In this document: positions 42,714-59,531 of the stretch, piece after piece
Numbering within the stretch: position 1 is the first letter of the stretch
Layout: each line of letters begins with the position of its first letter
From: a virus
DNA: 61,587 nt
Virus record (IMG/VR): IMGVR_UViG_3300032288_002407
Coordinates: 1 to 61,587 of that record
Direction: 5' to 3' (one strand)
Notes under the pieces: model-generated
What the model was told of the DNA's origin: nothing
The model's database searches: none
What the model saw: only the letters and a program-made list of their open reading frames with translations
Made by a program: the position numbers and the translations under genes

Positions 42714-42732
42714 AAAGAAAACTGCACACGCC

Positions 42733-44251: not shown

Positions 44252-44418
44252 GCCGCCACGGAAACTCGATGATCCCAAGTGATCGTCAATACGATGAATA
44301 CTACGCCATACGTTGCGATGATTGCAACGTGAAGCTGAACACCGAAGAACTCAAGCGAGGCGACCCATACCTATGCGAGATTTGTTTTGAACGCGAACAA
44401 GAAACCGAAGAAGAATGA
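44248..44418 (+). CDS. small zinc-ribbon protein
   Basis: A 56-residue protein with CDDCNVKLNTEELKRGD and CEIC: two CxxC pairs 22 residues apart, a compact zinc ribbon. Starts by ATGA overlap with the membrane peptide (44248) and ends by ATGA with the next gene. Acidic C terminus. Function is unknown. Confidence 0.55.
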   Translation: MSRHGNSMIPSDRQYDEYYAIRCDDCNVKLNTEELKRGDPYLCEICFEREQETEEE

Positions 44419-44792
44419 ACACACCAAGACCAACACCTGAGACGGATGTTGTTGTAGCCAATGACACAGGCGACAACGGATTCTTAGACGAAATTGTTAA
44501 AACTTGCCGCCGTTTGGAACGCGAGCGCGACGAGACGGTCAAGCAACTCGAAGCCATGCGTGACGAACTGCAAAAGGTCTGCCAGCAGCGGGACGCATGG
44601 GCCATGCGGTGTGACAAGCTAGATGTCACAGCCATGCGCGAGGCGATCAAAGAGGCGATTGATAGCTTGAATAAATGCTCGCGAGTAATTGGTGCGCCAA
44701 AGACTTACGAATGGGCCGATGAGGATGTTTGCGATGCAGCATACAATTCAGCTCAAACCACCCTCGCCAAACTCAAACCCTTCCTTCCATGA
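44415..44792 (+). CDS. phage coiled-coil protein
   Basis: A 125-residue protein. The N terminus NTPRPTPETD and the later LERERDETVKQLEAMRDEL follow a pattern common in small phage proteins (Thr/Pro start, then coiled coil). Coupled by ATGA to both neighbours. Function is unknown. Confidence 0.65.
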   Translation: MNTPRPTPETDVVVANDTGDNGFLDEIVKTCRRLERERDETVKQLEAMRDELQKVCQQRDAWAMRCDKLDVTAMREAIKEAIDSLNKCSRVIGAPKTYEWADEDVCDAAYNSAQTTLAKLKPFLP

Positions 44793-45268
44793 GTGAAGAA
44801 GAAACCCACGACACAGACGAATTGCTGAATACCATCCGCAAGCTCGAATCCGCGCTTGCGGAAACCGCAAAAGCGAGAGATCACAATCGAACATGCGTGA
44901 AACAACTCGAACGCGAGCGCGACGAGGCCCGCGAGCAACTTGAAGCCATGGAACGCGCAGGAGCCGAGCAAGCTCGACGCGCAGACGAGAACCGCGAATG
45001 GGATTTAAGAGCGGAGCGCGAGCGGGATGAAGCCCGAATCCATCTCCGCCACACGATTGACGAACTTGCCGACGAGCAACAGGCGCACGGACTCACAAAA
45101 GGCAAGCTGACCGAATGCCAGATGGAAATGGCAGCCATGCGTGAAGCCATCAAGGAAGTGTCTTTGCAACTGACCTTTGCCGAAAAAGTGTCCCGCACCA
45201 GCGTCCTCCACATTTATGTCTATGACGCCCTCGCCAAACTCCAACCCTTCATCCAGCCGAAACCATGA
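44789..45268 (+). CDS. phage coiled-coil protein, paralogous to the gene before it
   Basis: A 159-residue protein from ATG 44789, chosen for its ATGA overlap. Long charged coiled coil (CVKQLERERDEAREQLEAME), with AMREAIKE and a C-terminal YDALAKLQPFI resembling the ends of the preceding protein. The two genes probably arose by duplication. Function is unknown. Confidence 0.6.
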   Translation: MSEEETHDTDELLNTIRKLESALAETAKARDHNRTCVKQLERERDEAREQLEAMERAGAEQARRADENREWDLRAERERDEARIHLRHTIDELADEQQAHGLTKGKLTECQMEMAAMREAIKEVSLQLTFAEKVSRTSVLHIYVYDALAKLQPFIQPKP

Positions 45269-45336
45269 ACATGACCGACGAACAAATGAGAATCGCCATC
45301 GCCTTCATCAAAACCCTCAACCTTGAACCAAAATGA
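45265..45336 (+). CDS. possible 23-residue peptide
   Basis: A short frame (MNMTDEQMRIAIAFIKTLNL then EPK) overlaps both neighbours as ATGA. Only its packing in the operon supports it. Confidence 0.3.
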   Translation: MNMTDEQMRIAIAFIKTLNLEPK

Positions 45337-45500
45337 CTATTGAAATCAACCGCACAGCAGGCATACTAGCCGCTCTCGATTACCTAAACATGACCGTGCC
45401 GAAAACGCCTGTCATTGGTAGGATCAGACAATTTTCCAAAGCCCCTCTGCTTGGGACGCCGAAGACCTCGGTGGAATTGAGGAACACTAAACAAGACTAA
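45333..45500 (+). CDS. small protein, unknown
   Basis: A 55-residue frame (MTIEINRTAGILAALDYLNM) ending just before the RecT gene. Starts by ATGA overlap with the short peptide frame. Function is unknown. Confidence 0.4.
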   Translation: MTIEINRTAGILAALDYLNMTVPKTPVIGRIRQFSKAPLLGTPKTSVELRNTKQD

Positions 45501-45501
45501 T

Positions 45502-46257
45502 ATGAGCACAGAAAATACAGAACCAGCAGCAGCACCAACACGTCAGCTTGCAAAGCAGCAAGCGACTCTCAAAGACCTGATTAGCGGCGACAAGTTCCGC
45601 GAACAAGTTTCCCTTGCACTTCCAGCGCATCTTACACCTGAGCGATTCAGCCGCATTGCGTTGAATGCCCTTCAGCGCACACCGAAGCTGCAAGACTGCA
45701 CGCAGGCCAGCTTGTTTAAATGCTTGCTCGACATGGCAGCAATGGGCATCGAGCCTGATGGTCGTCGGGCGCACTTGATTCCATACGGCAACGAAGTCAC
45801 GCTGATCCTTGACTACAAAGGTCTGCTAGAACTCGTTCGTCGTTCGGGCGATGTGGTCAGCATTCGTTCCGAGCTTGTCTGCGAGAACGATGAGTTCTCA
45901 TGGGAGAACGGTAAGGTCACGCACAAGATTGACTGGCGCAAACCCCGTGGCGAAATGCAAGCGGTGTATGCCGAGGCCGTTCTCAAGTCCGGCGAAACGC
46001 AAACTGCAACCATGACCAAAGATGAAGTGGATGCCATTCGCAAACGCAGTCGCAGTGGTAGCAATGGACCTTGGGCAACGGACTATGGTGAAATGGCTAA
46101 GAAGACAACCCTCCGCCGTTTGTGCAAATTGCTTCCGCTCTCTCCTGAGATTGCCGAGCACGTTGACAAAGATCAAGACATTGTGCGCGAGATTGACGTG
46201 ACTCCAACAGTTAAAGCCTCCCTCAACCTTCCATCTGCACAGGAGGAAGCCGTATGA
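45502..46257 (+). CDS. recT: RecT-family single-strand annealing protein
   Basis: A 251-residue protein with the RecT core: LPAHLTPERFSRIALNAL, LLDMAAMGIEPDGRRAHLIP, VTLILDYKGLLELVRRSGD, and KKTTLRRLCKLLP. RecT proteins anneal complementary strands during phage recombination and repair. Length is typical. It starts the recombination operon with a nucleotidyltransferase-like gene, an exonuclease and an SSB. Confidence 0.9.
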   Translation: MSTENTEPAAAPTRQLAKQQATLKDLISGDKFREQVSLALPAHLTPERFSRIALNALQRTPKLQDCTQASLFKCLLDMAAMGIEPDGRRAHLIPYGNEVTLILDYKGLLELVRRSGDVVSIRSELVCENDEFSWENGKVTHKIDWRKPRGEMQAVYAEAVLKSGETQTATMTKDEVDAIRKRSRSGSNGPWATDYGEMAKKTTLRRLCKLLPLSPEIAEHVDKDQDIVREIDVTPTVKASLNLPSAQEEAV

Positions 46258-46802
46258 ATAATTTCGACCAACATCTGTTTAGTTTGTATGAGCCAGTCGG
46301 CAACGCATGGGTTGAGAAGAACTCATTCGTTTTCCATGAAGCGAAGCAATGTGGGATTGCATTAGCTGGGTCTATTGGGGCCGCAGTTGCATCCAAAAAG
46401 GCAAGAAAAATTCCGGGTGATATTGACTTTGTTTCCCCTGATCTTATGTCCGCCATGAGATTCCACACCCGACTTCAGGACAAGCTGTTCCGTTATCCCG
46501 TTTACTGGCAAACACAGATCAATCACCGGACTAATTTTTGCCCTGACAATGTGGATGTTCATATCCGACTGCATGCTCCATTTTGGTTGCCAATTTGCAT
46601 CTTTGTCCTCCAAGAGGGAAAGTTTAGACAATGGTTCACAAAAGAAGCGCAACCGATTCAGTTCTTTGGAGATGTTCGCCAAGCAGCCGAAGAAATGGAA
46701 GCAAGAGATGGTAAAATTAGGGAGGTTGGCGTCCCAAATGACAATGCGTTATTGGATGATCTGTTGGACGCATGCAAAAGCCCATATATGCCTAATCTAT
46801 GA
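46254..46802 (+). CDS. nucleotidyltransferase-fold protein
   Basis: A 182-residue protein. AGSIGAA (residues 38-44, with GS at 39-40) followed by GDIDF (55-59) and NVDVHI (99-104) matches the nucleotidyltransferase superfamily pattern: a Gly-Ser patch, a DxD pair and a third acidic residue. It is coupled by ATGA to RecT on one side and the exonuclease on the other. Possible roles include nucleotide transfer to DNA, RNA or protein. No HEPN partner is adjacent. Confidence 0.6.
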   Translation: MNNFDQHLFSLYEPVGNAWVEKNSFVFHEAKQCGIALAGSIGAAVASKKARKIPGDIDFVSPDLMSAMRFHTRLQDKLFRYPVYWQTQINHRTNFCPDNVDVHIRLHAPFWLPICIFVLQEGKFRQWFTKEAQPIQFFGDVRQAAEEMEARDGKIREVGVPNDNALLDDLLDACKSPYMPNL

Positions 46803-47593
46803 TTATTCTTGAAGAAAGCATTTACCGGCCTCATCCGGCGCTCAACTATTCGGCAGCCAAGTCGTTGCTAAAGTCACCAAAGCACTTCCAAGCATCGCTC
46901 AATCGCAAGTTTGAGCCATCGCGGGAGATGATTATTGGCAGCGCGGTCCACAGCATCGTTTTGGAGGGCAAGCAACCTTCCTACATCGTTCGTCCTGCTG
47001 ATCTCGACCTTCGCACCAAGGAGGGTAAAGCATGGCGGGATAAGCACGCTGGCATGGAAATCGTTACGCAGGAAGATCACGACATTGTGCTTAAAGCTGC
47101 CGCTGCTGTGCAAGCTAGTCTTGACGCGCAGTATCTTCTCAAACTTTGTCCGCACCGAGAGATTGGTATTGTCTCCAATTACACCGGAGTGGAAATCAAA
47201 GGGCGTCTTGATGCTCATGGCAAAGACGAAGCTGGAAAGCCGATCATTCTGGACTTCAAGACAACGAGCGATGCTGATCCTGAAACGTGGGGCAAGAAAG
47301 CCTTTGGCCTTCGCTACCCCATGCAGACAGCATGGTATGAATCTCTACTAGCTCTTGAACTTGGCCTTGAAGAACCACCTGCTTATTTCTGGCTTGTGGT
47401 TGAGACGCAAGACCCATTCGATGTTGTGATTTATCAGCCACCCGAAGAAGCTCTGGAGATTGGCCGCGCTCAAATGAAGCATTGCATCGAAAGCTATAAA
47501 ACGTGCCTTGCCACAGGTAAATGGCCGGGATACACAAAAGGAATCATTCAGCTTGAAGTTCCTGTATGGGAACGCAAACGCTGGATCAAGTAA
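46799..47593 (+). CDS. PD-(D/E)XK exonuclease
   Basis: A 264-residue protein with GSAVHSIVL (H51), GRLDAHG (D138) and IILDFKTT (D152, K154), then MQTAWY (Gln). This is the catalytic core of Cas4/RecB-like phage exonucleases that pair with RecT. Starts by ATGA overlap. It would resect ends to give single strands for RecT. Confidence 0.88.
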   Translation: MIILEESIYRPHPALNYSAAKSLLKSPKHFQASLNRKFEPSREMIIGSAVHSIVLEGKQPSYIVRPADLDLRTKEGKAWRDKHAGMEIVTQEDHDIVLKAAAAVQASLDAQYLLKLCPHREIGIVSNYTGVEIKGRLDAHGKDEAGKPIILDFKTTSDADPETWGKKAFGLRYPMQTAWYESLLALELGLEEPPAYFWLVVETQDPFDVVIYQPPEEALEIGRAQMKHCIESYKTCLATGKWPGYTKGIIQLEVPVWERKRWIK

Positions 47594-47618
47594 GACAAAC
47601 ACCAAAGACAAACAAAAT

Positions 47619-48677
47619 ATGAATGAAAATATCACATTAGTTATTCCCAACGGGGATATGTTGCCTCAATCCATGCTGTCTAATATCCGCGAAGGATTCC
47701 AGTCAGCATTTGAGCAAGCTGAAACATGGAGAGAAAAAGCTCTTGCTATCAAAGTCACTTCATTGGCAGACAAAGAAGCTATGAAACAAGCTCGCGAAAT
47801 GCGTCTAGTTTTGAAAAACATTCGTGTCGAAGCCGAGAAAAAACGCAAAGCTCTAAAAGAAGATGCTCTTGTAATGGGGCGAGCCATTGATGGTGTAAAC
47901 AACCTGCTTCTTGCGGCCATCCAGCCACTTGAGAGGCACCTTGAAGAACAAGAGAGGTTCGCTGAACGCTTGGCTGAACAAGAGCGCCAACGCCGCTTGA
48001 GTGAGCGCACCGAAGCACTTCAACCATATCTTGAAGCAAATCAGGTTATTCCAGCCTTGGATGCGATGACAGACGACCAGTTTGCCAAGTATCTTGAAGA
48101 TGCGAAATTGCTGCACGCCGCTAAGCTCGAAGCAGCCAAAAAAGCCGAGGCAGAACGCATCGCTCGCGAGCAAGCTGAAGCCGCTGAACGTGAACGTCTC
48201 CGCATTGAGAACGAACACCTCAGAGCGGAGGCTGCTGAACGAGAAGCCAAAGCAAAAGCAGAGCGCGAAGCCGCTGAAAAGGCTCAACGTGAAGCCGCTG
48301 AAAAAGCTCGCAAAGAACGTGAAGCTATTGAAGCCAAAGCAAAAGCAGAGCGCGAAGCCGCTGAACTTGAGCTTAATCGCATCAAGGCGGAACAAGAGGC
48401 CGCAGCCAAGAAGGAACGTGAAGCACGCGAAAAGTTGGAGCGCGAGTTGGCAGCAAAAAAAGCAGCCGAAGAAGCCAAGGCTAAAGCAGAGGCCGAGGCA
48501 ATTAAAAAGGCTGCACAAGCTCCTGATAAAGAAAAGCTGCTACTCATTGCTGAATCGGTTCGGTCCATCAAGATGCCATCTGTTTCGACAGATGAAGCAA
48601 AATTGATTCTTGCTGACATCTCAACCAAACGGGATAACTTCGCAAAGTGGATCGAAAATCAAATCGCCACAATTTAA
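47619..48677 (+). CDS. long coiled-coil recombination-operon protein
   Basis: A 352-residue protein from ATG 47619 (aaaatATG); the upstream extension lies inside the exonuclease gene. Residues 1-100 are a helical domain (AFEQAETWREKALAIKVTSL). Residues about 170-310 are an Ala/Glu/Lys-rich coiled coil with EREAAEKAQREAAEKARKER repeats. Proteins of this type accompany recT operons in phages. A scaffold or regulatory role is plausible, not shown. Confidence 0.65.
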   Translation: MNENITLVIPNGDMLPQSMLSNIREGFQSAFEQAETWREKALAIKVTSLADKEAMKQAREMRLVLKNIRVEAEKKRKALKEDALVMGRAIDGVNNLLLAAIQPLERHLEEQERFAERLAEQERQRRLSERTEALQPYLEANQVIPALDAMTDDQFAKYLEDAKLLHAAKLEAAKKAEAERIAREQAEAAERERLRIENEHLRAEAAEREAKAKAEREAAEKAQREAAEKARKEREAIEAKAKAEREAAELELNRIKAEQEAAAKKEREAREKLERELAAKKAAEEAKAKAEAEAIKKAAQAPDKEKLLLIAESVRSIKMPSVSTDEAKLILADISTKRDNFAKWIENQIATI

Positions 48678-48695
48678 CACCAAAGACAAAGACAC

Positions 48696-49088
48696 ATGCC
48701 TAACAACACCATCAACGTATCCTTCGACCTGCTTAAACTGCAAGGCGCGAAGAAAATCTTCGCCAAAGACGGGAAGCCCTACATCGCTATTTGCATTCCT
48801 GAAAGCCGCATCAAGGTTTTCAACCGCAAAGATGGCAGCGAAAGCCTATTCTTGGAACTCGACATCAAATCAAATCGTGATGGCGAGGACAAGTTCGGCA
48901 AAACCCACTTTGTTGCCGAAGCCACCACCAAGGAGGAACGCGCCGAGAAAGTGAAATTGCCCATAATCGGCAACGGAAAAGAATTCATCTTCAATTCAGG
49001 TGGAGGTGGTTCCAAGCCTGCTCCACGTCCAGCGAAGCAAGAGTCGTTTGTGGAGGACACGGGCGACGATACGGACATCCCATTTTGA
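48696..49088 (+). CDS. ssb: single-stranded DNA-binding protein
   Basis: A 130-residue protein with an OB-like beta N-terminal domain (PYIAICIPESRIKVFNRKDG), a Gly-rich linker (SGGGGSKPAPRP) and an acidic tip ending DDTDIPF, the typical SSB C-terminal motif for partner binding. Placed right after the recombination genes. The OB fold itself is inferred from pattern only. Confidence 0.75.
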   Translation: MPNNTINVSFDLLKLQGAKKIFAKDGKPYIAICIPESRIKVFNRKDGSESLFLELDIKSNRDGEDKFGKTHFVAEATTKEERAEKVKLPIIGNGKEFIFNSGGGGSKPAPRPAKQESFVEDTGDDTDIPF

Positions 49089-49137
49089 GCAACCTCAACA
49101 CCCCGTTGGCCGAGGGGTAAATCGGCCAATTTATAAT

Positions 49138-49311
49138 ATGACACTCTCAGAACTTATTCAGCAACTCAACGACCTCCACGCCAGTCTTGGTCGCGCCCCT
49201 AACATCGAGGTCAACTTTCGCATTGGCGATCCTCCAGACGATGAAGGCCAGTGTCAAATCTTCGACGTAGGATGGGAACCAAGGTTGCGTCTCGTCACCA
49301 TTTGCGGGTAA
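49138..49311 (+). CDS. small protein, unknown
   Basis: A 57-residue protein from ATG 49138 (ataatATG): helical start (LSELIQQLNDLHASLGRAPN) and beta-like end (EVNFRIGDPPDDEGQC). Similar short proteins with LxxLxxxxGxxP occur in phages. Function is unknown. Confidence 0.55.
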   Translation: MTLSELIQQLNDLHASLGRAPNIEVNFRIGDPPDDEGQCQIFDVGWEPRLRLVTICG

Positions 49312-49330
49312 TTTATGACATTAGGCCATC

Positions 49331-49662
49331 ATGGAATCCTCCGACTGTTCCCCAACGCAAGCCCTGATCTTTTATCTCGAAATACCAGTCAAGCTGCCAT
49401 CGTGGAACGAGATTCTAGGGATGAACCATTGGCGAAGAAAGAAGTTCAAAGACGATCTAGCGAAAGGGTTCTTGTTCGCGTTACGAGCGTCCGCAAACGA
49501 TTGCTCGATGAAGACAACCTCTGCGAAAAATACCATGTTGACCTATGCCGATACGCTGGAGTCATATCTGGCGACGAAGCAGGCAAAACGAAAATTGAGA
49601 CAGCGCAGCGCAAAGCTGAAAAAGACGAAGAAGAAAAAGTAATCATCGAGGTTTTCCAATAA
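49331..49662 (+). CDS. RusA-like Holliday junction resolvase spread over two frames
   Basis: The N-terminal part (frame starting 49331; FYLEIPVKLPSWNEILGMNH, WRRKKFKDDLAKGFL) looks like a RusA start. The catalytic part (frame ending 49662; RLLDEDNLCEKYHVDLCRYA, GVISGDE) supplies the DxDN and later Asp residues. They are in different frames, so a -1 shift (or +2) is needed between about 49440 and 49490, near gcgAAAGGGttc. The upstream extension of the second frame is not natural. It may be programmed frameshifting or a real indel. Confidence 0.55.
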
Positions 49663-49907
49663 TGCCCAACGCCAAACAGCCATCCCCAGCACTTAGGCTC
49701 CACGAACAAATGGCACGTTTGCTCAACGGGACAAAAGCTCATCACGACGAAGTTACCGAAATCCTCATTGCGTTTCTAGCGATTCAAGTTTCCAGCTACA
49801 ATCCTCTTGAGCGCATAGACGTTTGGGACGCAGTTATTGATACCCTTGACGACATGATCGAAGAAATCAGCGAAATGAAAGACGAAGAAATCACAATACA
49901 AAACTGA
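49662..49907 (+). CDS. small acidic protein, unknown
   Basis: An 81-residue protein whose ATG overlaps the stop of the RusA frame (TAATG). Helical with an acidic end (LDDMIEEISEMKDEEITIQN). No motif recognised. Confidence 0.55.
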   Translation: MPNAKQPSPALRLHEQMARLLNGTKAHHDEVTEILIAFLAIQVSSYNPLERIDVWDAVIDTLDDMIEEISEMKDEEITIQN

Positions 49908-49908
49908 T

Positions 49909-50109
49909 ATGACATCCGAATCCAATGTTTTCACTTTATCGCAATCGGCGCTTGAAGCAGTCTGCAAAGAACGCGACGAGGCTCAAGCAAAACTCAAAGA
50001 AGCCAAGGAGCTAATGAACGATGCCATGTGGCAGCTTATGATTTTCCTGAAACCCGCAGACACAAAAACTCAAGGCATCATCAAAAAACTTCAGGAAGCT
50101 CTTGTCTAA
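49909..50109 (+). CDS. small coiled-coil protein
   Basis: A 66-residue protein starting at TGATATG after the previous stop. Coiled coil (LEAVCKERDEAQAKLKEAKE). Resembles the charged coiled-coil genes at 44415 and 44789. Function is unknown. Confidence 0.55.
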   Translation: MTSESNVFTLSQSALEAVCKERDEAQAKLKEAKELMNDAMWQLMIFLKPADTKTQGIIKKLQEALV

Positions 50110-50193
50110 AATAATTCAAAAAACATTCAGAATCCCGATTGACTCTCGTTCGCATTTGTGCGAGCAAACCTATGTCGCAAGACAACCCACAAT

Positions 50194-51093
50194 ATGAAAA
50201 CAAATAATAACATCATCACCAACACTGAAACTATCCGTCCTCTCGTAAGGGGATTCTACGATCTGCAAAAGCTCCGCATCCACACGGGCAACCGTTTGTG
50301 TGCTCAATTCCGCGCCAAGCTAGGGCTGCAATCTTCCGAGAAGGAGGAAGAAGATGAGAAGGCCGAAGAAGTCCTCGACATCATTCGTGCTTCATACAAG
50401 AAGCTCACCGATGGCGTGAAGAAGGAACTCCCCAACATGAAGTCCTTCGTGGGGGATGAAGTGATCTCCGACTACACCGAGCTTTGCCTCGTCTCGCAAT
50501 ACATTGACCTTGAATCCCGCGAGAGCACGCATCTTCGCCGCATCGAGAACATCGTGCAGGAACACCCATTGTGGGATGCTTTCTTTGCAAACGTGCGTGG
50601 TTGCGGTCCTACAATGGCTGGCGTCATCCTGTGCGAGATTGACATTACTCGCGCTACCTATCCAAGCTCTCTCTGGCAATACTCAGGCTTTGGCGTTGAA
50701 GCAGACGGACGTGGAACCAGTCGCCGCAAGGAGCACATGCACCGCATCAGCTACACGGACAAGGAGGGCAAACCTGCCGAGCGTGATGGCATCCGCTACA
50801 ACCCTTGGCTCAAAACCAAGCTGTATGTCCTTGGCACTTGCTTCGTCAAGGCTGGTGGCCTTTACCGCTCATACTACGACAACTACAAGAACCGCTTGGA
50901 GAACAGCCCGAAATGGGTGGAAGCAAGCAAAGGACACCGCCACAACGCCGCGATGCGTTACATGATTAAGCGGTTCCTCGTTGATCTTTACAAGGCTTGG
51001 AGGCCGCTTGAAGGTCTGCCTGTTGCGCCAGAATACGGCGAAGGCAAACTCGGCATTATCCACGGCCAAGTTAAGCTGCCAATGGCGGCATAA
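50194..51093 (+). CDS. IS110-type recombinase C-terminal domain protein
   Basis: A 299-residue protein from ATG 50194 (acaatATG). Residues 14-44 (RPLVRGFYDLQKLRIHTGNR) resemble the coiled coil that follows the DEDD domain in IS110 enzymes. Residues 134-150 (VRGCGPTMAGVILCEID) are a helix-hairpin-helix like the IS110 GxGxxxA segment. Then come WQYSGFG, GTSRRKEH (S176, candidate catalytic serine), NPWLKTKL and GHRHNAAMRYMIKRFLVDLY, following the Transposase_20 pattern. The N-terminal DEDD nuclease domain is absent. It is followed after 17 bases by the repeat array. Confidence 0.65.
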   Translation: MKTNNNIITNTETIRPLVRGFYDLQKLRIHTGNRLCAQFRAKLGLQSSEKEEEDEKAEEVLDIIRASYKKLTDGVKKELPNMKSFVGDEVISDYTELCLVSQYIDLESRESTHLRRIENIVQEHPLWDAFFANVRGCGPTMAGVILCEIDITRATYPSSLWQYSGFGVEADGRGTSRRKEHMHRISYTDKEGKPAERDGIRYNPWLKTKLYVLGTCFVKAGGLYRSYYDNYKNRLENSPKWVEASKGHRHNAAMRYMIKRFLVDLYKAWRPLEGLPVAPEYGEGKLGIIHGQVKLPMAA

Positions 51094-51110
51094 ATTTTGT
51101 CATTTCTGAT

Positions 51111-51544
51111 AAGTCACCCAAAGTGTAAAAGCGAGTCACGTTCTTGAAGTCACCCATCGAGCGCAAGCGAGTCACACATATAAAGTCACCCTCTGGTAAA
51201 AAGCGAGAGTCTGTTTCATCAAGTCACCCAGCATAATAAAGCGAGTCAAGGGACCGAAGTCATCCATTGTCTTGAAGCGAGCCATTAGCGAGAAGTTACC
51301 CATAGAAAACAAGCGAGTCAGATTCATGAAGTCACCCATGAAAACAAAACGAGCCATCCGCGTTGAGCCAACCAAAGCGTCGAAGCGAGTCAATTCCCAA
51401 CAGCCATCCACTGCCCGATAGCGAGCCATTGATCTAAAGCCACCCAAGTAGTGAAAGCGAGTCAGTATGCTGAAGCCAACCAAAGCCCATTTGCGAGTCA
51501 AGTGACTAGAGACACCCAACATCTTGTAGCGAGTCAACTATGAG
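51111..51544. repeat. 12-unit 36-bp array with two alternating 10-mers and variable 8-mers
   Basis: Each unit is AAGTCACCCA, 8 variable bases, AAGCGAGTCA, 8 variable bases. Units start at 51111, 51147, 51183, 51221, 51257, 51293, 51329, 51365, 51401, 51437, 51473 and 51509. All are 36 bp except unit 3 (38 bp, two extra bases in the second 10-mer). The first 10-mer is nearly constant in units 1-7 and becomes xAGCCA-like in units 8-11. The spacers show no common sequence. It is not CRISPR-like in dimensions. It may be an RNA-guide array, an iteron-like binding array, or unrelated to the neighbour. Confidence 0.9.
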
Positions 51545-51562
51545 CGACTATTTGACATCAAC

Positions 51563-51704
51563 TTCTGCGTGAATATATGCAGAGTGCCGGTTAGCTGCGT
51601 GAGAAACAGTCCGGTTAAAATTGAGCTTAACTTCAAATGCTGCCCACCTTCCGGCGACCTCCTTGCTCAGGATTTCTCACCTCCGGTTGCGTGGGCAGCT
51701 CCTT
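51563..51704 (+). ncRNA. hairpin-rich untranslated region after the array
   Basis: Between the array and the ParB-like gene. CTGCGTGA...CAG...CCGGTTA occurs twice in tandem (51564-51593 and 51594-51617). CTGC/GCAG (51564-51567 with 51579-51582) closes one hairpin. GCCGG/CCGGT (51586-51590 with 51611-51615) encloses GCTG/CAGT. GCTGCCCAC/GTGGGCAGC (51639-51647 with 51691-51699) is a perfect 9-bp long-range stem followed by TCCTTTTT, possibly a terminator. No good reading frame covers it. Confidence 0.45.
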
Positions 51705-51713
51705 TTTACATCC

Positions 51714-52538
51714 ATGAAACCACATCAACTCTGTTCCGCATTCCCCGCCATGTCCGATGAGGACTTTTCGATTCTCTCTAAAGACATCGCTACGAATGGT
51801 CAACTTGAGCCTATCACGACCTTTGAGGGGGCTATCCTTGACGGCTGGCATCGTTATCAAGCGTGTGCTGAACTCAATATCACACCTAAGACCCAAGAGT
51901 TCAAAGGTGACGATCCTGCTGCCTTTGTGCTATCAAAGAACCTGCATCGCCGTCATCTGAATGCCAGCCAGCGTGCCGTTGCGGTTACGGCTTGCAGGGA
52001 GTGGATGCCGAGAGGTAGGCAAAATCAAATGGACACTAGTGTCCATTTAATCTCCAATGAAGATTTGGCAAAGGAGGCAAGCGTTGGGATTCAAACTATC
52101 AAGGACGCCAAAGTAGCAATCAAAGCAGGCCGCACGGATGAAGTGGTGGCTGGCAAGACTTCGGTGAAGAAGATTGCGGCTGAAGTTCGCGGTAAGCCCA
52201 CAGAAAAGCCTAAACCTGTTTTTGCGCCAGAACCTGAGCGTGAGAATGATAATGGGATTGACCTTACTTCCGAGTTTCAGGCTGTCTGCGACGAGAACCA
52301 AAAGCTCCAAGAACTCAATGAAAGCCTGATGAAGGACGACACAAAGAAGGAGATTGCCGTTTGGCGTGACAAGTTTGACGCTGCCTGTGGTCGTATCAAC
52401 CAACTCACAACGACCATCAACGAGATGAGGAAGCAGTTGGAGTATCAGACCAAGTTGTTCGCCAACATCCGCAAAGAACTGCGTGTCGAGAAGAACTCCG
52501 AAATCCTTTCAGCTATCAAGGAGGCCATGTCAAAATGA
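51714..52538 (+). CDS. ParB-like N-terminal domain protein
   Basis: A 274-residue protein from ATG 51714; the longer frame to 51621 runs through the structured region and has an implausible N terminus. Residues 13-85 follow the ParB/Srx pattern: NGQLEPITTFEGAILDGWHR (28-47) then FVLSKNLHRRHLNASQRAVA. A possible helix-turn-helix follows (LAKEASVGIQTIKDAKVAIK), and a C-terminal coiled coil. Such phage proteins bind nucleotide and DNA or act as nucleases. It lies next to the array and overlaps the helicase gene by ATGA. Confidence 0.75.
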   Translation: MKPHQLCSAFPAMSDEDFSILSKDIATNGQLEPITTFEGAILDGWHRYQACAELNITPKTQEFKGDDPAAFVLSKNLHRRHLNASQRAVAVTACREWMPRGRQNQMDTSVHLISNEDLAKEASVGIQTIKDAKVAIKAGRTDEVVAGKTSVKKIAAEVRGKPTEKPKPVFAPEPERENDNGIDLTSEFQAVCDENQKLQELNESLMKDDTKKEIAVWRDKFDAACGRINQLTTTINEMRKQLEYQTKLFANIRKELRVEKNSEILSAIKEAMSK

Positions 52539-54025
52539 GCATTCCAATCGAACTGCGCCCTTATCAAAATGAGAGCGTTGAGGGATTGCGAGCTAACATT
52601 CGTGACGGCATTAAGAACCAAGTTCTTTGCAGTCCAACAGGAAGTGGCAAAACAGTGATTGCTCTCTATTTGCTTGACGAGTGCCGCAACAAAAACAAAC
52701 GAGCCATCTTCGTTGTGGAGCGGCTTCCATTGGTGGAACAGACATCCGCCATGTTGGACAAGTTTGGCATCGACCACGGTGTTATTCAAGGCAATCACTG
52801 GAGAACGAGGCCGGGAGAAAAGATTCAAGTTGCCACTGCTCAGACGCTTGATCGTCGTGGCTGGCCTGATGCCGACCTTATCATCGTTGACGAATGCCAT
52901 GTAATGCACAAGGACACGCTCAAGAAGATCGTGAAGCGTGACTCAATCACCATCGGCTTGACGGCTACTCCGTTCACTCGCGGGATGGGTAGATTTTACG
53001 ACAAGGTGGTGAACGTGACGACCAGCAATAAACTTATGGACGAAGGTTTCTTGGTTCCAGCCAAGATTTTTGCCGCCAGCCAGCCTGATATGACTGGCGC
53101 AAAAGTTGTTGCTGGAGAGTGGACAGACGCAGAATGCTCATCTCGCGCCATGCCGATCATCGGTGATTGCGTAGCGGAGTATCTCAAGCATGGAAACGAT
53201 AAGAAGTTTATCGCCTTCGGTGTCGATGTTGAGCACTGCAAGGAAATGCAGAAGCAGTTTATGGCTGCTGGCGTGATTTGTGAGCTTCATACTTATCAAG
53301 ACGGAGACAAGATTCGTGAGGCGAACATGATCGAGTTTCGCAAGCCTAACTCCTACATTCGTGGATTGATTTCTGTGTCAGCTCTATCTCGCGGTCTAGA
53401 TGTTCCAGATGTCTCTTGTGTCATCATGTGCCGCCCATTGCGCAAGGCATTCTCTGAGTTCATTCAGGTAATTGGTCGAGGCTTACGCCCTTATCCAAAC
53501 AAAGATCATTGCATCATTCTTGACCATAGCGGCAACTACTCACGCTTTTTCGGTAAGATGCAGGACTTGTTTGAAGAAGGCGTCCACGAACTCGACACTG
53601 GCGAGAAGAATGACAAAGAGAAGAAAAAGAAGGAGGACAAGGAGAAGGAACCAGTTAAATGCCCCAAGTGTCACCATGTTCACACGCCGATGCCAGCATG
53701 TCCTGTGTGCGGGAATGTCTATCCCAAGAAGGAAACAGTCACACATGAGGCTGGAGAACTGCATGAGGTTGGTTCTATAAAGCGCATGTCCAGCGATGAA
53801 AAACGAACACTCTACGGGGAACTCAAGTGGATTGCCAGTAGCCGTAATTGGAGCAAAGGAGCATTAGCTCACAAGTTCCGTGAGATTGCTGGCGTGTGGC
53901 CCAACAATTACGAGGATGCTCCCATGCTCATAGCGACGCAAAAAACCATCAACAAAGTCCAGCAACTCCACATTGCTTGGATGAAATCAGAAAAATATAG
54001 ACAATGGAAAGCAGCCAGAAAATGA
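52535..54025 (+). CDS. superfamily 2 DNA helicase with zinc ribbon
   Basis: A 496-residue protein with helicase motifs SPTGSGKT (33-40), IVDECH (117-122), LTATPF (142-147), and a C-terminal helicase half ending in QVIGRGLRPYP. A zinc ribbon (CPKCHHVHTPMPACPVCG) follows at about 375-393. It probably unwinds DNA during phage replication. ATGA overlaps join it to the ParB-like and primase genes. Confidence 0.9.
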   Translation: MSIPIELRPYQNESVEGLRANIRDGIKNQVLCSPTGSGKTVIALYLLDECRNKNKRAIFVVERLPLVEQTSAMLDKFGIDHGVIQGNHWRTRPGEKIQVATAQTLDRRGWPDADLIIVDECHVMHKDTLKKIVKRDSITIGLTATPFTRGMGRFYDKVVNVTTSNKLMDEGFLVPAKIFAASQPDMTGAKVVAGEWTDAECSSRAMPIIGDCVAEYLKHGNDKKFIAFGVDVEHCKEMQKQFMAAGVICELHTYQDGDKIREANMIEFRKPNSYIRGLISVSALSRGLDVPDVSCVIMCRPLRKAFSEFIQVIGRGLRPYPNKDHCIILDHSGNYSRFFGKMQDLFEEGVHELDTGEKNDKEKKKKEDKEKEPVKCPKCHHVHTPMPACPVCGNVYPKKETVTHEAGELHEVGSIKRMSSDEKRTLYGELKWIASSRNWSKGALAHKFREIAGVWPNNYEDAPMLIATQKTINKVQQLHIAWMKSEKYRQWKAARK

Positions 54026-55005
54026 ACTTCAGAGACTTCCTTCTCTCTCTTGGAATCAATCCTCCGCAGACTTTTACACCCGGACAATGGCAACGGTGCT
54101 CAACTACGACACATCCACGCAAAAAGAACGCCAGCATCAAGCTCGTTGAGACAGGTGACATTGGATTTGCTCAAGACTTTGCTAATATGGCAGAACCCTG
54201 CATTTGGCGGCAGGAAGGAGCGACTAATGTAAAACCATTGGATCAGGCTGAGATACGCTCCAGAATTGCCGCAAAGAAGCGAGAACTCATTGAATGCACC
54301 AAAGCCGCAAGGGAGTTTTACGCGCACAAATGCACGCCACTGCTGCACGGGCATCCTTATCTCGACAAAAAAGGATTGGATATGTCTGGTTGTTATGGAC
54401 TCAAACAAGATGAACGAGGTAATCTAGTCGTTCCTATGAGTCTCAATGGCTCGCTGATTTCTTTGCAGCGGATTACGCCAGAAGGGACAAAGTTGTTTTG
54501 GTCAGGAGCAACGACCAACGGCACTTCTTATGTTATTAAGCGCAAAAAAGCTACGATCACGCTAGTCTGCGAAGGCTTGGCTACTGGACTTACACTCTGG
54601 AATGCTATTCCTAACGCACAAGTGATTGTTGCTTTCAATGCAGGTAATCTTGCAAGGGCAGTCGTTCACCATGACATCAGCGGCCTGTGCGTTGTCTGCG
54701 CTGACAACGACCATGAAACCCAGCAGCGCATTGGTAAGAATCCCGGTGTAGATGCAGCCACTCTTGCTGCGGATGCCATCGGCTGCGACATTGCCGTTCC
54801 TGAATGCGTGAATGGCACTGACTTCGACGACTGGAGGCAGGAACTACTAGCGAGCGAGCGACAGCAGAACTTGTTCCGAAAGTGGAAACTCACTGACAAC
54901 CAGATGCGCTCTAATGCTTTTGCCACGATCAAAGCCTGCATTTCTACACGACTAAAATTCATAAAAACCAAACATCCGGTTTATGACTCTCTTATTGCTG
55001 CCTAA
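54022..55005 (+). CDS. Toprim-domain DNA primase
   Basis: A 327-residue protein from ATG 54022, chosen for the ATGA overlap with the helicase stop. The Toprim domain shows LVCEGLATGLTL (E184) and VVCADNDHE (D228, D230). The N-terminal region has a few Cys/His but no clear zinc finger of the T7 type. It would prime lagging-strand synthesis with the adjacent helicase, although no helicase domain is fused. Confidence 0.82.
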   Translation: MNFRDFLLSLGINPPQTFTPGQWQRCSTTTHPRKKNASIKLVETGDIGFAQDFANMAEPCIWRQEGATNVKPLDQAEIRSRIAAKKRELIECTKAAREFYAHKCTPLLHGHPYLDKKGLDMSGCYGLKQDERGNLVVPMSLNGSLISLQRITPEGTKLFWSGATTNGTSYVIKRKKATITLVCEGLATGLTLWNAIPNAQVIVAFNAGNLARAVVHHDISGLCVVCADNDHETQQRIGKNPGVDAATLAADAIGCDIAVPECVNGTDFDDWRQELLASERQQNLFRKWKLTDNQMRSNAFATIKACISTRLKFIKTKHPVYDSLIAA

Positions 55006-55223
55006 TGCGCTCCGGCGATAGGGGGATGGTAAGGGGGATTTTCAGAAAAATCCAATACTCTCTCAATATAGTGGATCAGCAATCTATAACGAATCGGCAT
55101 AAGCCACTTACCGCATCCATGCACGATGTTGAGATAATTGTAGAAAAGCAACGTGCTACTGGATGGACAAACGCTATCAAGTTGAAGTATCACCCAGCCA
55201 AACGCACGTTTAGCAAAATGTAA
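55005..55223 (+). CDS. small basic protein, unknown
   Basis: A 72-residue protein whose ATG overlaps the primase stop (TAATG). Basic (NAIKLKYHPAKRTFSKM). An alternative start lies at 55026. Function is unknown. Confidence 0.5.
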   Translation: MRSGDRGMVRGIFRKIQYSLNIVDQQSITNRHKPLTASMHDVEIIVEKQRATGWTNAIKLKYHPAKRTFSKM

Positions 55224-55263
55224 CCTCTTGCAAAACTCACCTTGACGCATAACCTTCTGTCAA

Positions 55264-57147
55264 ATGGCAGTTGCCGCAAAACCAGTCAAAGATAATCGCG
55301 CCATCAAATATGGGCGTGTTTGGCCCAACAAACCTTGGGGTCCAAAGGGCAAGATTATCCCTTGTCCTGAGTGGTATATGGAGCTTTGCATTTTGCGTGG
55401 CTATGACCGAATGAAAGCCATTCCGGGCAACAAGTTGGTGAGTTGGCCGCAGCATTTTGTGAACTTCACCAAAATCGTGTTTGGTGATCCAAGGGGGATT
55501 TTCTATTTTGAGTGGAATCCAAATTCGATGCGGATTCTAGGCAACTTTTACAAACACAACATACTCGCAATAGCAGGACACAAATCGAGTTCTAAAACGG
55601 AAACACTAGCCCTTATAGGTGCAATGTGGTTTTTCCTATTCCCAAAAGATACTAAGGTCATAGTAACTTCCACTACGGTAGCAGCAGCCAAAGACAAGGT
55701 ATGGGGAAAGATCAAACTCATCTGGATTCATCTGGAGAAGTATTTCGGTTCCAACTTTATGCCGGGAAAGCTAGTGGATTCGCAGAACCGTATTCGGTTT
55801 GAGCATGATGGAGTCAAAAGTGAAACGAGAGGCATCGTCCTTCTGGCATCCGAAAGTTCCTCCGAGAAAGAGTCTGCTGACAAGCTGCAAGGCACGAAGG
55901 CCGAACGAATGATTGTGATGGGTGATGAGTTCGCCACACTCAAGCATTCGCTTCTCAACACGGTGCTGAACAACCTTACGGCTAACAAGCAGTGCAAGTT
56001 GGCAGGGGCATTCAACCCAAACTCGTTCTATGATCCGGGTGGCATCATCTCACGTCCCAAAGGAGGATGGGCGACCATCACTGAGGACGATGACGAATGG
56101 GAAACCGAGATTGAGCCTTTTGGCCTCAAGGGGTATTGCATTCGATTTGACGGTGAGAAATCGCCAAACGTGGTTCTTGGTGAGGAACGCTGGAAGGGCT
56201 TGCTAACGCTGGAAAAGCTCCAGCAAATCGGTCCCATAGGCACCAAAACCAAGGGCTACTACGAGCAGATTCGCGGTTTTTGGAGTCCTGCTGGTGATCT
56301 GGATTCCATCTACACCGAGACGGAAATTGTGAAGTATGGGGCTGATCGTCCTTGCGCCACATGGGTTGAGCCTCCTGTCATTGTTGCTGCGCTTGACCCC
56401 GGATTCGTGCATGGAGGTGACCGTGCTGCTTTGGCTATTGGAAAATCAGGCATCGCTGTCAATGTGGACACTCAGACGAAACAGAAAGTGTTTGAGCTTA
56501 CCCACCTGTATGTGCTGGATGAAGACATCACGAACAAGAGTATTTCCAAAGTTGAATGGGTGGTCCAACTTACCAAAGAAAAGCTGCGAGAGCATAAAGT
56601 GGATGTGCGGAACTTTGCCATTGACGCAACGGGTGGTGGTGAACCGTTTGGAGCGTTGATTGCACGCGAAATTGGCCTTGGCTTCATCAACATCAAGTTC
56701 TCTGGCAGAGGCTCGGATATGCCAGTTTCTCGAAACGATAATCGCAAAGGGTGTGACCGATTCTTCAACATGGCTTCTGAGCTTTGGTATGTAGGCCGAG
56801 AACTTGTCCGCACAGGGCAGCTCAAAGGGCTTAAACCAGACGTGGTGGCCGAATTGGTTTCACGAACGTATCAGGAAAAAGCTGGCGTGGTTCAAATCGA
56901 GTCGAAGAAAGACATGCGATTGCGAACCAAGAAATCTCCGGACTTGGCGGACGCAGCCCTTATGTGCCTACACGTTGCGCGTGTTCGACACAACCTTTCA
57001 TCAAACGAGAAAGCCGCAGTCGTGCTTCGACAGCGCCCCGGCAACAGCGAATTTAGCTTGAGCTTCTTGACTCAGAAACCTACTCAATCCACTTTACCTC
57101 AAAGCCGACTCATCACATTTGGTGGTGGGTGGGCGAATCAGATATGA
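55264..57147 (+). CDS. terminase large subunit
   Basis: A 627-residue protein. The ATPase has a Walker A-like GHKSSSKT (105-112), which lacks the usual Gly before Lys, and Walker B MIVMGDEF (216-223). The nuclease half has AALDPGFVHGGD, DATGGGE and DLADAAL, the acidic residues expected of the RNase-H-like domain. It would package DNA through the portal. It lies at the end of the replication block, far from head genes. It overlaps the glycosyltransferase gene by ATGA. Confidence 0.9.
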   Translation: MAVAAKPVKDNRAIKYGRVWPNKPWGPKGKIIPCPEWYMELCILRGYDRMKAIPGNKLVSWPQHFVNFTKIVFGDPRGIFYFEWNPNSMRILGNFYKHNILAIAGHKSSSKTETLALIGAMWFFLFPKDTKVIVTSTTVAAAKDKVWGKIKLIWIHLEKYFGSNFMPGKLVDSQNRIRFEHDGVKSETRGIVLLASESSSEKESADKLQGTKAERMIVMGDEFATLKHSLLNTVLNNLTANKQCKLAGAFNPNSFYDPGGIISRPKGGWATITEDDDEWETEIEPFGLKGYCIRFDGEKSPNVVLGEERWKGLLTLEKLQQIGPIGTKTKGYYEQIRGFWSPAGDLDSIYTETEIVKYGADRPCATWVEPPVIVAALDPGFVHGGDRAALAIGKSGIAVNVDTQTKQKVFELTHLYVLDEDITNKSISKVEWVVQLTKEKLREHKVDVRNFAIDATGGGEPFGALIAREIGLGFINIKFSGRGSDMPVSRNDNRKGCDRFFNMASELWYVGRELVRTGQLKGLKPDVVAELVSRTYQEKAGVVQIESKKDMRLRTKKSPDLADAALMCLHVARVRHNLSSNEKAAVVLRQRPGNSEFSLSFLTQKPTQSTLPQSRLITFGGGWANQI

Positions 57148-59531
57148 AAATCAGTCTTTTGCACGCCACTCGTCGTCCTGAAGTTGCCAAAAAATGCCAG
57201 CAGCTATGGCTTGGACGTGCGGACAACTCAGCCAACATTGAAATAATCACCTGCGTTGACCATGATGACGAAGCTGGCAAGGCTGCGTTTCCTGATGCGG
57301 TAATCTCCAATGAGAACACCGTTGTAGCGGCATGGAACAAAGCTGCTGAAGAAGCGACTGGTGATGTGCTGGTTGCTTTAGATGATGATTGGCAACCCGC
57401 TCATGCTTGGGATCAGATCATTGAGTCCTACATGAGCAATGGGGCAGACATCCTGCACGTTGGCGACAAGCATCGAAAAGATGAACTGATTTGCCATCCC
57501 ATCATGTCTAAGCGTTTCTATGAAGCAATGGGCTATCTGTGGCACCCGTCCTTCAAGTCGGTCTATTGCGACAACTGGTTCACTGAAGTTGCAAAACGAT
57601 GGGGCTATGTAGATGCCACAAAAGGAGGTAAGGTTGACCTTGGTTTTCTCCATGCTAATCCCTCGCAAGGTTATGGCGAAGAAGATGATGTGGCTCGCAA
57701 GTCGAACTCCAAGGAACGCTATGAGCATGGGGCTACGACTTTGGGACGCTTGCAAAGCCAGACCATTTTGGCTTTTACCTGCGCTGATCGTCCGCAGTAT
57801 CTCAAACCTACGCTGGATAGCTGGCTTAAAACCAACTTGTCGCTTTTGTCATCGGTTCACTTCTTTATTGAGCCTACGGACAAGAGGCATGAATGCGTGG
57901 CTGTCATTGACGAGTTTGCGGCTAAGTCGCCGGTTCCTGTCATCAAGCATTTCAACAAAGAAAAGCTAGGTGTTCTACGCAATCCTTGGCACTTGTTTGA
58001 CCACTGCTTCCGCATCGAGGGCGCAATCTTTACCATTCTTGGCGAGGACGACTTTCTTGTTTCGCCAGACATCCTCGACTTTCTTTGGGGAACAAGCCGT
58101 TGGAACCTGCATGGCGACGAGAAAACAATGGCGATCTGCGCTAAGTGGGTAGGCGATAAGGCCGACAAGAATCCCGCGACATGGCATCGAGTCACCGAGT
58201 TCACTGGCAACATCTGGGGAACATGGCCCCATGTGTGGAACAAATATCTCAAAGACACTTGGGACTTTGACTATTCAAGTGGGAAAGAGGACGAATCTCC
58301 CGCAGGCTGGGACTGGAATCTCCAGCTTCGGGTTATGCCAAAGAACGACCTGCATTGCATCGTTCCAACAGCCTCAAGGTCTAAGCACATTGGCATTGAA
58401 GGAATCCATTGCACCGAGGAAGTCTTTGAGGATACCGTGGCGTGGAACTTTGTGGAACATAAGTATGATGGCAATTACCTGTCCGTTGAGGATGCAGTAA
58501 AACCAATCAAAGTGAACATTGATTTGCCCTCCGTGGTGGTATCCAGCAGCGGCGATTTAGGTGACTGCGTTGTGTCTTTAGCACCCCTTGTTTATCGAGG
58601 CAATCCTACCATTTACCATCTTTGGGACGATGGTATGACCAAAGGCATTGTAGCCCGTGAGAAGTTCATCCGCCCCTTCCTTGAAAGCCAGCCTATCATC
58701 AAGGCTGTCCGCATCGGAAGGCCAAACGAATGTGATTGGCGTTCAGAGGATTTCCGCCACCGTAGTTTGCATGACGGATTCTCCAACTTGGCCGAAGTCC
58801 ATGCCCGACACGCCAAATTGGTTGGATTCTTAGCAGACGTTCCGAGGTTTGATCGTCCTTGGCTGACGCTTTTTGACGTAAAATCCCACGGCAGAATCGT
58901 GGTCAATCGCAGCCCTCGTTACCACAATGACAAGTTCCCTTGGGCCAAGATCGTCAAGCACTACGGCAAACGCCTTGTTTTTGTGGGTCTGGATGAAGAA
59001 TACGAGGCATTCAGCCACTTTGGGGAGATTGAGCGTGTCAGGGTCAAAGACATGCTGGAATTGGCCCATCTGATTGCTGGCAGCAGCTTGTTCATTGGTA
59101 ACCAGTCTGTGTCCATGACGATTGCGGAAGGGCTGAAACACCCTCGAATCCAAGAGGCTTGCCTATGGTTGCCAGACTGCATTTACCCCGGTGTGAACGG
59201 TCAATACATCGGCACAGGGGCAGTTAATCTGCCCTCCATTGACGGTTCTGGTGAAGCCTGTATCAAGGCAGAAATAGTCATGCCAGAAGGCTTGGAGACA
59301 CCTCCCGGTGGCTGGCAGTATCACGGTTTGCCCAAAAACTTGATGCACCCCAATGCAGCTATTTCGATGATTCGGCAGCAAAAACCCGAACTAAGCAATG
59401 CCGAGGCCAAGCAGTTACTCATGGAGTTCAACGCTGAACGGGTTCCTGAGTTCTTTGATAAAAGTCATCTTGACAGTTCCTACGCTAAGTTTAGGCTTGC
59501 TATGCTCAACGCTGGGCATCCCACTACATGA
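57144..59531 (+). CDS. three-domain glycosyltransferase
   Basis: A 795-residue protein from ATG 57144 (ATGA overlap with the terminase). Domain 1 (about 1-195) is GT-A-like with VALDDDWQPA. Domain 2 (about 205-440) begins TILAFTCADRPQYLKPTLDS and has LGEDDFLVS, a second GT-A. Domain 3 (about 460-740) begins VVSSSGDLGDCVVSLAPL and contains LIAGSSLFIGNQSVSMTIAE, like GT9-type GT-B enzymes. A helical tail follows. It may glycosylate phage DNA, virion proteins or host glycans; the target is unknown. Confidence 0.75.
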   Translation: MKISLLHATRRPEVAKKCQQLWLGRADNSANIEIITCVDHDDEAGKAAFPDAVISNENTVVAAWNKAAEEATGDVLVALDDDWQPAHAWDQIIESYMSNGADILHVGDKHRKDELICHPIMSKRFYEAMGYLWHPSFKSVYCDNWFTEVAKRWGYVDATKGGKVDLGFLHANPSQGYGEEDDVARKSNSKERYEHGATTLGRLQSQTILAFTCADRPQYLKPTLDSWLKTNLSLLSSVHFFIEPTDKRHECVAVIDEFAAKSPVPVIKHFNKEKLGVLRNPWHLFDHCFRIEGAIFTILGEDDFLVSPDILDFLWGTSRWNLHGDEKTMAICAKWVGDKADKNPATWHRVTEFTGNIWGTWPHVWNKYLKDTWDFDYSSGKEDESPAGWDWNLQLRVMPKNDLHCIVPTASRSKHIGIEGIHCTEEVFEDTVAWNFVEHKYDGNYLSVEDAVKPIKVNIDLPSVVVSSSGDLGDCVVSLAPLVYRGNPTIYHLWDDGMTKGIVAREKFIRPFLESQPIIKAVRIGRPNECDWRSEDFRHRSLHDGFSNLAEVHARHAKLVGFLADVPRFDRPWLTLFDVKSHGRIVVNRSPRYHNDKFPWAKIVKHYGKRLVFVGLDEEYEAFSHFGEIERVRVKDMLELAHLIAGSSLFIGNQSVSMTIAEGLKHPRIQEACLWLPDCIYPGVNGQYIGTGAVNLPSIDGSGEACIKAEIVMPEGLETPPGGWQYHGLPKNLMHPNAAISMIRQQKPELSNAEAKQLLMEFNAERVPEFFDKSHLDSSYAKFRLAMLNAGHPTT

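What the first reader, a model, noticed from the sequence alone, without database searches (positions are those of the whole stretch)
50194..51713. IS110-type recombinase domain next to a two-motif repeat array: candidate RNA-guided system
Seen: a 299-residue protein with an IS110/Transposase_20-like C-terminal half (VRGCGPTMAGVILCEID, GTSRRKEH, GHRHNAAMRYMIKRFL) and no N-terminal DEDD nuclease domain, followed after 17 bases by a 12-unit array of two alternating 10-mers with variable 8-mers, then a hairpin-rich untranslated region. Known: IS110-family recombinases use a structured bridge RNA, encoded in the noncoding part of the element, with two guide loops that pair with donor and target DNA. 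Inference: the array could be a multi-guide RNA in which the two 10-mers play the roles of the two loop scaffolds. The missing nuclease domain means either a binding-only domesticated enzyme or a partner nuclease; a RusA-like gene lies 500-900 bases upstream.
Basis: partly seen in the sequence, partly recalled or inferred. Interest (0 to 1): 0.93.

Follow-up and report, generated by a model that had tools for sequence, protein, structure and literature searches.

The report
Phage TIGR-TasA dual-spacer guide array
A bacterial virus carries a nuclease-free TIGR-Tas system, a recently described CRISPR-like set-up in which one small protein uses short two-part guide RNAs to find DNA; the family is known, but closely related arrays here show that whole guide units are gained, lost and reshuffled quickly.

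Summary
A 299-aa gene (50194-51093) is followed by 12 loop and 12 edge repeats alternating with 9-nt spacers (51111-51536), then a terminator-like hairpin. It is not a new IS110-type system. It is a TIGR-Tas system of the solo-Nop (TasA) kind described in 2025 (PMC12045711). The protein matches NCBIfam NF052498 TIGR_Tas_endo (E 1.8e-41, above cut-off). By sequence and by predicted fold its best solved relatives are TasR and TasH, with IS621 clearly behind. The testable array hallmarks are met: 36-nt unit, edge and loop repeats, 5'-truncated first edge, covarying edge pairs, terminator. The array accompanies the gene at 70 of 78 homologous loci; in an array-first search 55 of 77 loci carry tas within 2 kb, always on the same strand. 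New observations: edge-spacerA-loop-spacerB behaves as one heritable cassette; more than half the units can turn over while tas diverges by 1-2%; sister phages have lost tas but keep the last two guide units. No natural target was found: matches in own, carrier and sister phage DNA equal chance. The proposed RusA-like partner is not supported. Most likely role: RNA-guided, cleavage-free binding to rival mobile DNA. Known kind, new member, moderate interest.

The parts
50194..51093 (+). tasA: solo-Nop TIGR-associated protein, 299 aa, no N-terminal RuvC, HNH or DEDD domain
   Evidence: NCBIfam NF052498 TIGR_Tas_endo E 1.8e-41, 142.5 bits, cut-off 100; phmmer TasR 9mty E 4.4e-12 and TasH 21kl E 1.1e-7; AF2 model pLDDT 78, Foldseek TasH 9w04 E 6.5e-11, TasR 9mty E 1.3e-8, IS621 8wt6 E 0.016
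51099..51110 (+). 5'-truncated edge repeat (GTCA) and first spacer A (TTTCTGAT)
   Evidence: Read from sequence; truncated first edge is a stated TIGR hallmark; same layout in L007 and others
51111..51536 (+). TIGR array: 12 loop repeats (consensus AAGYCANCCA) and 12 edge repeats (AAGCGAGYCA) alternating with 8-9-nt spacers; 36-nt units edge-spacerA-loop-spacerB
   Evidence: control
51201..51220 (+). aberrant edge copy AAGCGAGAGTC with a 20-nt step (2-nt insertion), shared with L001
51437..51536 (+). last units of the array, with spacers shared by most or all close relatives; the last two units (GTATGCTGA/AAGCCCATT and AGTGACTAG/ACATCTTGT) also persist in tas-less sister phages L133, L134 and L143
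51543..51547 (+). possible 3'-truncated edge (AGCGA)
   Evidence: read from sequence; 6 nt rather than 9 after the last edge, so tentative
51639..51707 (+). rho-independent-terminator-like structure: stem GCTGCCCACC...GCGTGGGCAGC then TCCTTTTT
   Evidence: L002 and L133 show the same architecture with a different stem sequence, CCTCCCCACC...GAGTGGGGAGG
51714..52538 (+). ParB-like gene (ATG right after the terminator); a parB-like gene is occasionally operonic with tasA, but here it follows the array only in the window and G003
   Evidence: PHROG 2159 ParB-like E 6e-5, no Pfam domain; not recurrent beside the other tas loci

Best explanation
This is a phage-encoded TIGR-TasA system. The array, just downstream of tasA on the same strand, is probably co-transcribed with it and ends at the terminator (inferred). 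By analogy with FpTasA, TaTasR and SpTasH, the transcript is cut inside each edge repeat into 36-nt tigRNAs (half-edge, spacer A, loop, spacer B, half-edge). The two ends of each tigRNA are held by two base pairs; this pairing is supported here by covariation. A TasA dimer binds one tigRNA, and the two 9-nt spacers pair with opposite strands of a roughly 18-bp DNA site, which is opened and bent. With no nuclease domain the outcome should be binding: blocking transcription or replication of a rival mobile element (inferred; about 50% likely as the biological role). Guide units are exchanged as whole cassettes, so a phage lineage re-programmes the protein by swapping units.
For: Protein family: NF052498 above cut-off; TasR and TasH are the best relatives by sequence and by predicted fold; the N-terminal helix of P0001 aligns to TasR residues 121-137, i.e. 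the protein starts where the TasR RuvC domain ends. Array: alternating repeats, 36-nt unit, truncated first edge, terminator as defined in PMC12045711. Co-occurrence: 70 of 78 tas homologues have the array, all on the same strand; most of the 8 without have truncated flanks. Array-first: 55 of 77 loci have tas within 2 kb, 55 of 55 same strand. Controls: 0 of 102 chunks and 0 of 200 shuffles. RNA-level constraint: edge positions 2-7 and 3-6 pair across the tigRNA ends in 1187 of 1198 internal cells, using G-C/A-U/G-U and C-G/U-A. Functional unit: where identical spacers are shared between different arrays, the edge-loop neighbour is kept 119 times and broken 22, the loop-edge neighbour kept 48 and broken 241.
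Against: No tigRNA, binding or phenotype has been measured here. No natural target was found: hits of window-family guide pairs (spacer A + 0-2 nt + reverse complement of spacer B) in 0.69 Mb of own, carrier and sister phage DNA equal re-paired controls (4 vs 4.1 at <=2 mismatches, 57 vs 58.2 at <=3). The NCBIfam model is titled 'endonuclease', which this protein cannot be shown to be. In an unfiltered count, edge pairing favoured tigRNA ends 85:15; removing truncated terminal edges leaves 23:10 (p 0.035), so that particular test is only modest.
Confidence: 0.93

Rival explanations
1. A domesticated IS110-type recombinase with a multi-guide bridge RNA array, perhaps acting with the RusA-like neighbour as nuclease.
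For: The protein shares the Nop/IS110 RNA-binding fold: IS621 and ISCro4 are hits 12 and 13 by fold; 31 of 34 homologues weakly match Transposase_20.
Against: No DEDD domain; TasR and TasH are far closer (E 1e-8 to 6e-11 vs 0.016); the array has TIGR edge/loop architecture; the RusA-like gene does not track tas and has no family match.
Confidence: 0.02
2. TIGR-TasA that regulates or helps the phage's own genome (self-regulation, or an RNA-guided aid to integration, replication or partition, e.g. with the ParB-like gene).
For: Nuclease-free; sits in the recombination/replication module (RecT, exonuclease VIII, helicase, primase); a parB-like gene follows the array in the window and G003; other family members sit next to DNA polymerase and helicase genes; the source paper notes tasParB operons.
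Against: No guide pair matches own or carrier genomes above chance; guide units turn over fast; ParB is not conserved in the family.
Confidence: 0.15
3. The array is DNA only: iterons, a partition site or an origin bound by the ParB-like or another protein.
For: 18-bp periodicity, neighbouring ParB-like gene and replication genes.
Against: Tight, strand-specific coupling to tas, compensatory pairing of edge positions, variable spacers inherited in unit pairs, and ParB absent in most loci.
Confidence: 0.03
4. A short repetitive protein or low-complexity coding sequence.
For: Long open frames run through some arrays.
Against: Spacers break frames in the window (TAA codons in the array frame; the 20-nt step shifts frame); those frames are a by-product of the 18-nt periodicity and lie on either strand.
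Confidence: 0.01

Closest known systems
TIGR-TasA (Faure et al. 2025, PMC12045711; e.g. Flavonifractor plautii FpTIGR)
   Same: Solo-Nop protein without nuclease; adjacent dual-repeat array; 36-nt unit; ~9-nt spacers; truncated terminal edges and terminator; in tailed phages; ParB-like neighbour in some loci
   Different: Box D reads AG here where TasR arrays have UG; box C reads CCA/UCA; the family extends over close phage relatives whose arrays can be compared unit by unit
TIGR-TasR (9mty) and TIGR-TasH (Salicola phage CGphi29; 9w04, 21kl)
   Same: Nop fold (best fold and sequence matches), array layout, edge-repeat base pairs
   Different: The window protein lacks the N-terminal RuvC or HNH nuclease; 20-21% identity over the aligned fold
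IS110 recombinases with bridge RNA (IS621 8wt6, ISCro4 9t56)
   Same: Related RNA-binding Nop-like fold; guide RNA with two guides
   Different: Have a DEDD/RuvC-like recombinase domain and a single non-array bridge RNA; fold match much weaker (E 0.016-0.02)
CRISPR arrays
   Same: Spacers turn over faster than the effector gene; shared units enriched toward the 3' end
   Different: Split 9+9 guides, no adaptation genes found, whole two-spacer cassettes exchanged and shuffled internally rather than added strictly at one end

Membership tests
TIGR-Tas (TasA type) | Nop-domain Tas protein family | tested here: met
   NF052498 142.5 bits vs cut-off 100; TasR/TasH by phmmer and Foldseek
TIGR-Tas (TasA type) | No fused nuclease (TasA) | tested here: met
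   299 aa; begins at the TasR coiled-coil position; no nuclease domain hit in Pfam
TIGR-Tas (TasA type) | Two alternating 8-12-nt repeats with ~9-nt spacers, 36-nt unit, beside the tas gene | tested here: met
TIGR-Tas (TasA type) | 5'-truncated first edge, 3'-truncated last edge, terminator | tested here: met
   GTCA at 51099-51102 and terminator 51639-51707; the 3' truncated edge is tentative
TIGR-Tas (TasA type) | Edge-repeat base pairs supported by covariation | tested here: met
   1187/1198 internal cells paired with pair-type changes
TIGR-Tas (TasA type) | Array processed to 36-nt tigRNAs bound by Tas | not testable with these tools
   needs RNA sequencing
TIGR-Tas (TasA type) | Tandem-spacer targeting of both DNA strands | tested here: inconclusive
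   Pairing of spacers A and B as one heritable unit fits; no natural target found
IS110 recombinase / bridge RNA | N-terminal DEDD (RuvC-like) recombinase domain | tested here: not met
   absent
IS110 recombinase / bridge RNA | Transposase_20 (PF02371) C-terminal domain | tested here: inconclusive
   not reached by the window protein; weak in 31 of 34 homologues
IS110 recombinase / bridge RNA | Single structured bridge RNA in the element's noncoding end | tested here: not met
   regular multi-unit array instead
TIGR TasA-TasParB operon | ParB-like gene in operon with tasA, conserved | tested here: inconclusive
   ParB-like gene follows the array terminator in window/G003 only; not compared with TasParB sequences

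The most novel reading that the evidence does not exclude
TIGR arrays evolve by rapid exchange of whole tigRNA cassettes (half-edge to half-edge) through recombination within edge repeats, and tas-less sister phages keep intact two-unit mini-arrays that may be served in trans by the Tas protein of a co-infecting relative, i.e. a guide-sharing or immunity economy among related phages.
Probability: 0.25. Interest if true: 0.75.

Novelty: new member of a known kind. Interest (0 to 1): 0.48.

Why it matters
TIGR-Tas is a recent RNA-guided class whose natural targets, array growth and the role of nuclease-free TasA are stated open questions. This locus belongs to a set of very close relatives whose arrays can be read unit by unit. 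That gives direct evidence on how arrays change (whole two-spacer cassettes, fast, with order partly shuffled), sister phages with and without tas, and a well-defined negative on self-targeting. These make the array-expansion question testable. An isolated phage with a named host, Microcystis phage Mvi-JY20, also carries an unannotated tas gene and array and could serve as a bench model.

Tried and rejected
Self or sister targets: spacer A + 0-2 nt + rc(spacer B) against own, carrier and sister phages, with wrong-orientation and re-paired controls; all at chance. One unit (CGTTCTTGA/TCGAGCGCA) had four 2-mismatch hits, but these lie in non-homologous places and re-paired controls reach 4 or more in 0.7% of cases: rejected. 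Exact IMG/VR scans of two conserved units gave about five independent sites each, judged near chance by a rough estimate. Mvi-JY20 guides against about 0.27 Mb of cyanophage DNA: nothing. RusA-like gene as partner nuclease: rejected. Rfam: no convincing family. Strict CRISPR-like polarity: rejected as a rule; sharing is 27/25/25/40/40% per fifth from 5' to 3', and some pairs share both ends or have shuffled order. An inflated edge-pairing contrast (85:15) was corrected to 23:10 after removing truncated terminal edges. A first tas nucleotide comparison of the window was offset by 3 nt and redone.

Full report
WHAT IS THERE. The window is a 61.6-kb virus record. At 50194-51093 lies a 299-aa gene. 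Its stop codon is followed after 17 nt by a regular array from 51111 to 51536: 12 copies of AAGTCACCCA-type repeats alternate with 12 copies of AAGCGAGTCA-type repeats, separated by 8-nt variable stretches. Because the first base of each 10-mer varies, especially in the 3' half, the array is better read as 9-nt repeats and 9-nt spacers. Upstream of the first full repeat there is a 5'-truncated second-type repeat (GTCA, 51099-51102) and a spacer, so the array begins with a partial edge repeat. One repeat (51201) is aberrant and makes a 20-nt step. Downstream, a GC-rich stem followed by TCCTTTTT looks like a terminator.

WHAT IT IS. A sequence search against the PDB returned only TasR (9mty, E 4.4e-12) and TasH (21kl, E 1.1e-7). 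NCBIfam scores the protein above the cut-off of NF052498, TIGR_Tas_endo (142.5 vs 100 bits, E 1.8e-41). An AlphaFold2 model from 34 homologues (pLDDT 78, pTM 0.72) matches TasH and TasR structures first (E 6.5e-11 to 1.8e-6), then IS621 and ISCro4 (E about 0.02), then box C/D Nop proteins weakly. The protein starts where the TasR RuvC domain ends, so it is the nuclease-free TasA type. PMC12045711 defines TIGR arrays as alternating 8-12-nt edge and loop repeats with 9-nt spacers, beginning with a 5'-truncated edge and ending with a 3'-truncated edge and a terminator, processed to 36-nt tigRNAs. The window fits: edge AAGCGAGYCA, loop AAGYCANCCA.

CO-OCCURRENCE. Scans for homologues gave 77 further loci. 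A detector for alternating repeats found arrays at 70 of the 78 loci including the window, all on the tas strand and mostly 8-30 nt from the gene. Six of the eight without have almost no upstream sequence. The detector gave 0 in 102 tas-free 7-kb strand-chunks and 0 in 200 shuffles. Some of the other 22 have ample flanks and no recognisable tas nearby; at least one contig (3300009285_002168) carries arrays at two places.

RNA-LEVEL EVIDENCE. In the TasR structure two base pairs join half-edges at the two ends of a tigRNA. Here, edge positions 2-7 are G-C, A-U or G-U and positions 3-6 are C-G or U-A; pairing across the tigRNA ends holds in 1187 of 1198 internal cells. In the window one edge reads AACGAGCCA (A and C, no pair within the copy), but each half pairs with the neighbouring edge of its own tigRNA (A-U and G-C). 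Over all arrays this contrast is modest once truncated end repeats are removed (23 vs 10, p 0.035); an earlier 85:15 count was inflated by them.

HOW THE ARRAYS CHANGE. Between non-identical arrays, when spacers are shared, the edge-to-loop neighbour (spacer A with spacer B) is kept 119 times and broken 22 times, while the loop-to-edge neighbour is kept 48 times and broken 241 times. Counts are not independent because arrays share ancestry, but the asymmetry is large: the tigRNA unit is the heritable cassette. Turnover is fast. L030 and L032 differ by 1.3% in tas yet only 10 of 26/31 units align; L054 and L055 differ by 1.8% with 8 of 21/20 aligned; L069 and L083 have 17 of 18 units identical and one unit replaced outright. 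The window and L001 differ at 25 of 897 tas bases, by one whole unit, and by 9 of 218 spacer bases. Shared units are somewhat commoner toward the 3' end.

A VARIABLE CASSETTE. Sister phages with 88-95% identity in a neighbouring protein (window 55264-57147) lack tas. In L133, L134 and L143 one junction removes tas and most of the array but leaves the last two units with intact edges and unchanged spacers. These may be decay remnants or mini-arrays used in trans; I cannot tell which.

TARGETS. From the cleavage geometry in PMC12045711 I derived the target as spacer A + 0-2 nt + reverse complement of spacer B. Window-family guides give 4 hits (4.1 expected) at <=2 mismatches and 57 (58.2 expected) at <=3 in 0.69 Mb of own, carrier and sister phage DNA. 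The 731 pairs of the whole family give no excess in 0.97 Mb of carrier DNA. Two exact IMG/VR scans gave only a few scattered independent sites. So self-regulation is not supported, and targets are presumably in hosts or unrelated mobile elements, which I could not search.

ROLE. Shown by others: TasA binds 36-nt RNAs; TasR and TasH use both spacers on opposite strands. Shown here: family, anatomy, covariation, cassette inheritance, absence of self-targets. Inferred: co-transcription, processing, DNA binding, and interference with rival DNA without cutting. The RusA-like gene is found without tas and tas without it; the ParB-like gene follows the array only in the window and G003.

VERDICT. What is new is the comparative picture of array evolution.

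Noticed in passing
L097 (PP438412.1 18107-25526), about 3261-4370: Isolated Microcystis phage Mvi-JY20 carries an unannotated Tas homologue followed by a TIGR array (edge ATGCGAGCC, loop ACGAAACCC) and a terminator; host Microcystis viridis is named, so it could be a bench model.
   Followed up: partly
L133:5470-5640, L134:5490-5660, L143:3890-3990: Tas-less sister phages keep a two-unit mini-TIGR array with intact edges and unchanged spacers at an identical deletion junction.
   Followed up: partly
L238, L241, L269, L274, L276: TIGR-like arrays with kilobases of flank and no recognisable tas nearby; possible orphan arrays served in trans, or more diverged Tas proteins.
   Followed up: partly
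window 51537-51720 and L001, L002, L004, L143: The array 3' end is a module joint: three different downstream gene contexts (ParB-like plus helicase; HNH-like; another protein) follow the same terminal units.
   Followed up: partly
window 50194-51093: NCBI's family name 'TIGR-Tas system RNA-guided endonuclease' (NF052498) would label this nuclease-free TasA as an endonuclease, a likely over-annotation.
   Followed up: yes
window 15495-15795 and 25591-26837: Short tandem repeats (9/18/36-bp GGTCC-rich blocks and 21-bp repeats) inside minus-strand ORFs, probably tail-fibre-type repeat proteins.
   Followed up: no
L092 5800-7342: Moraniibacteriota MAG contig with a Tas homologue and a 37-nt-period array that uses other repeats.
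   Followed up: no
window 1..61587 versus G003: G003 starts inside the ParB-like gene and ends in the array region, so the two records look circularly permuted relative to each other.
   Followed up: no
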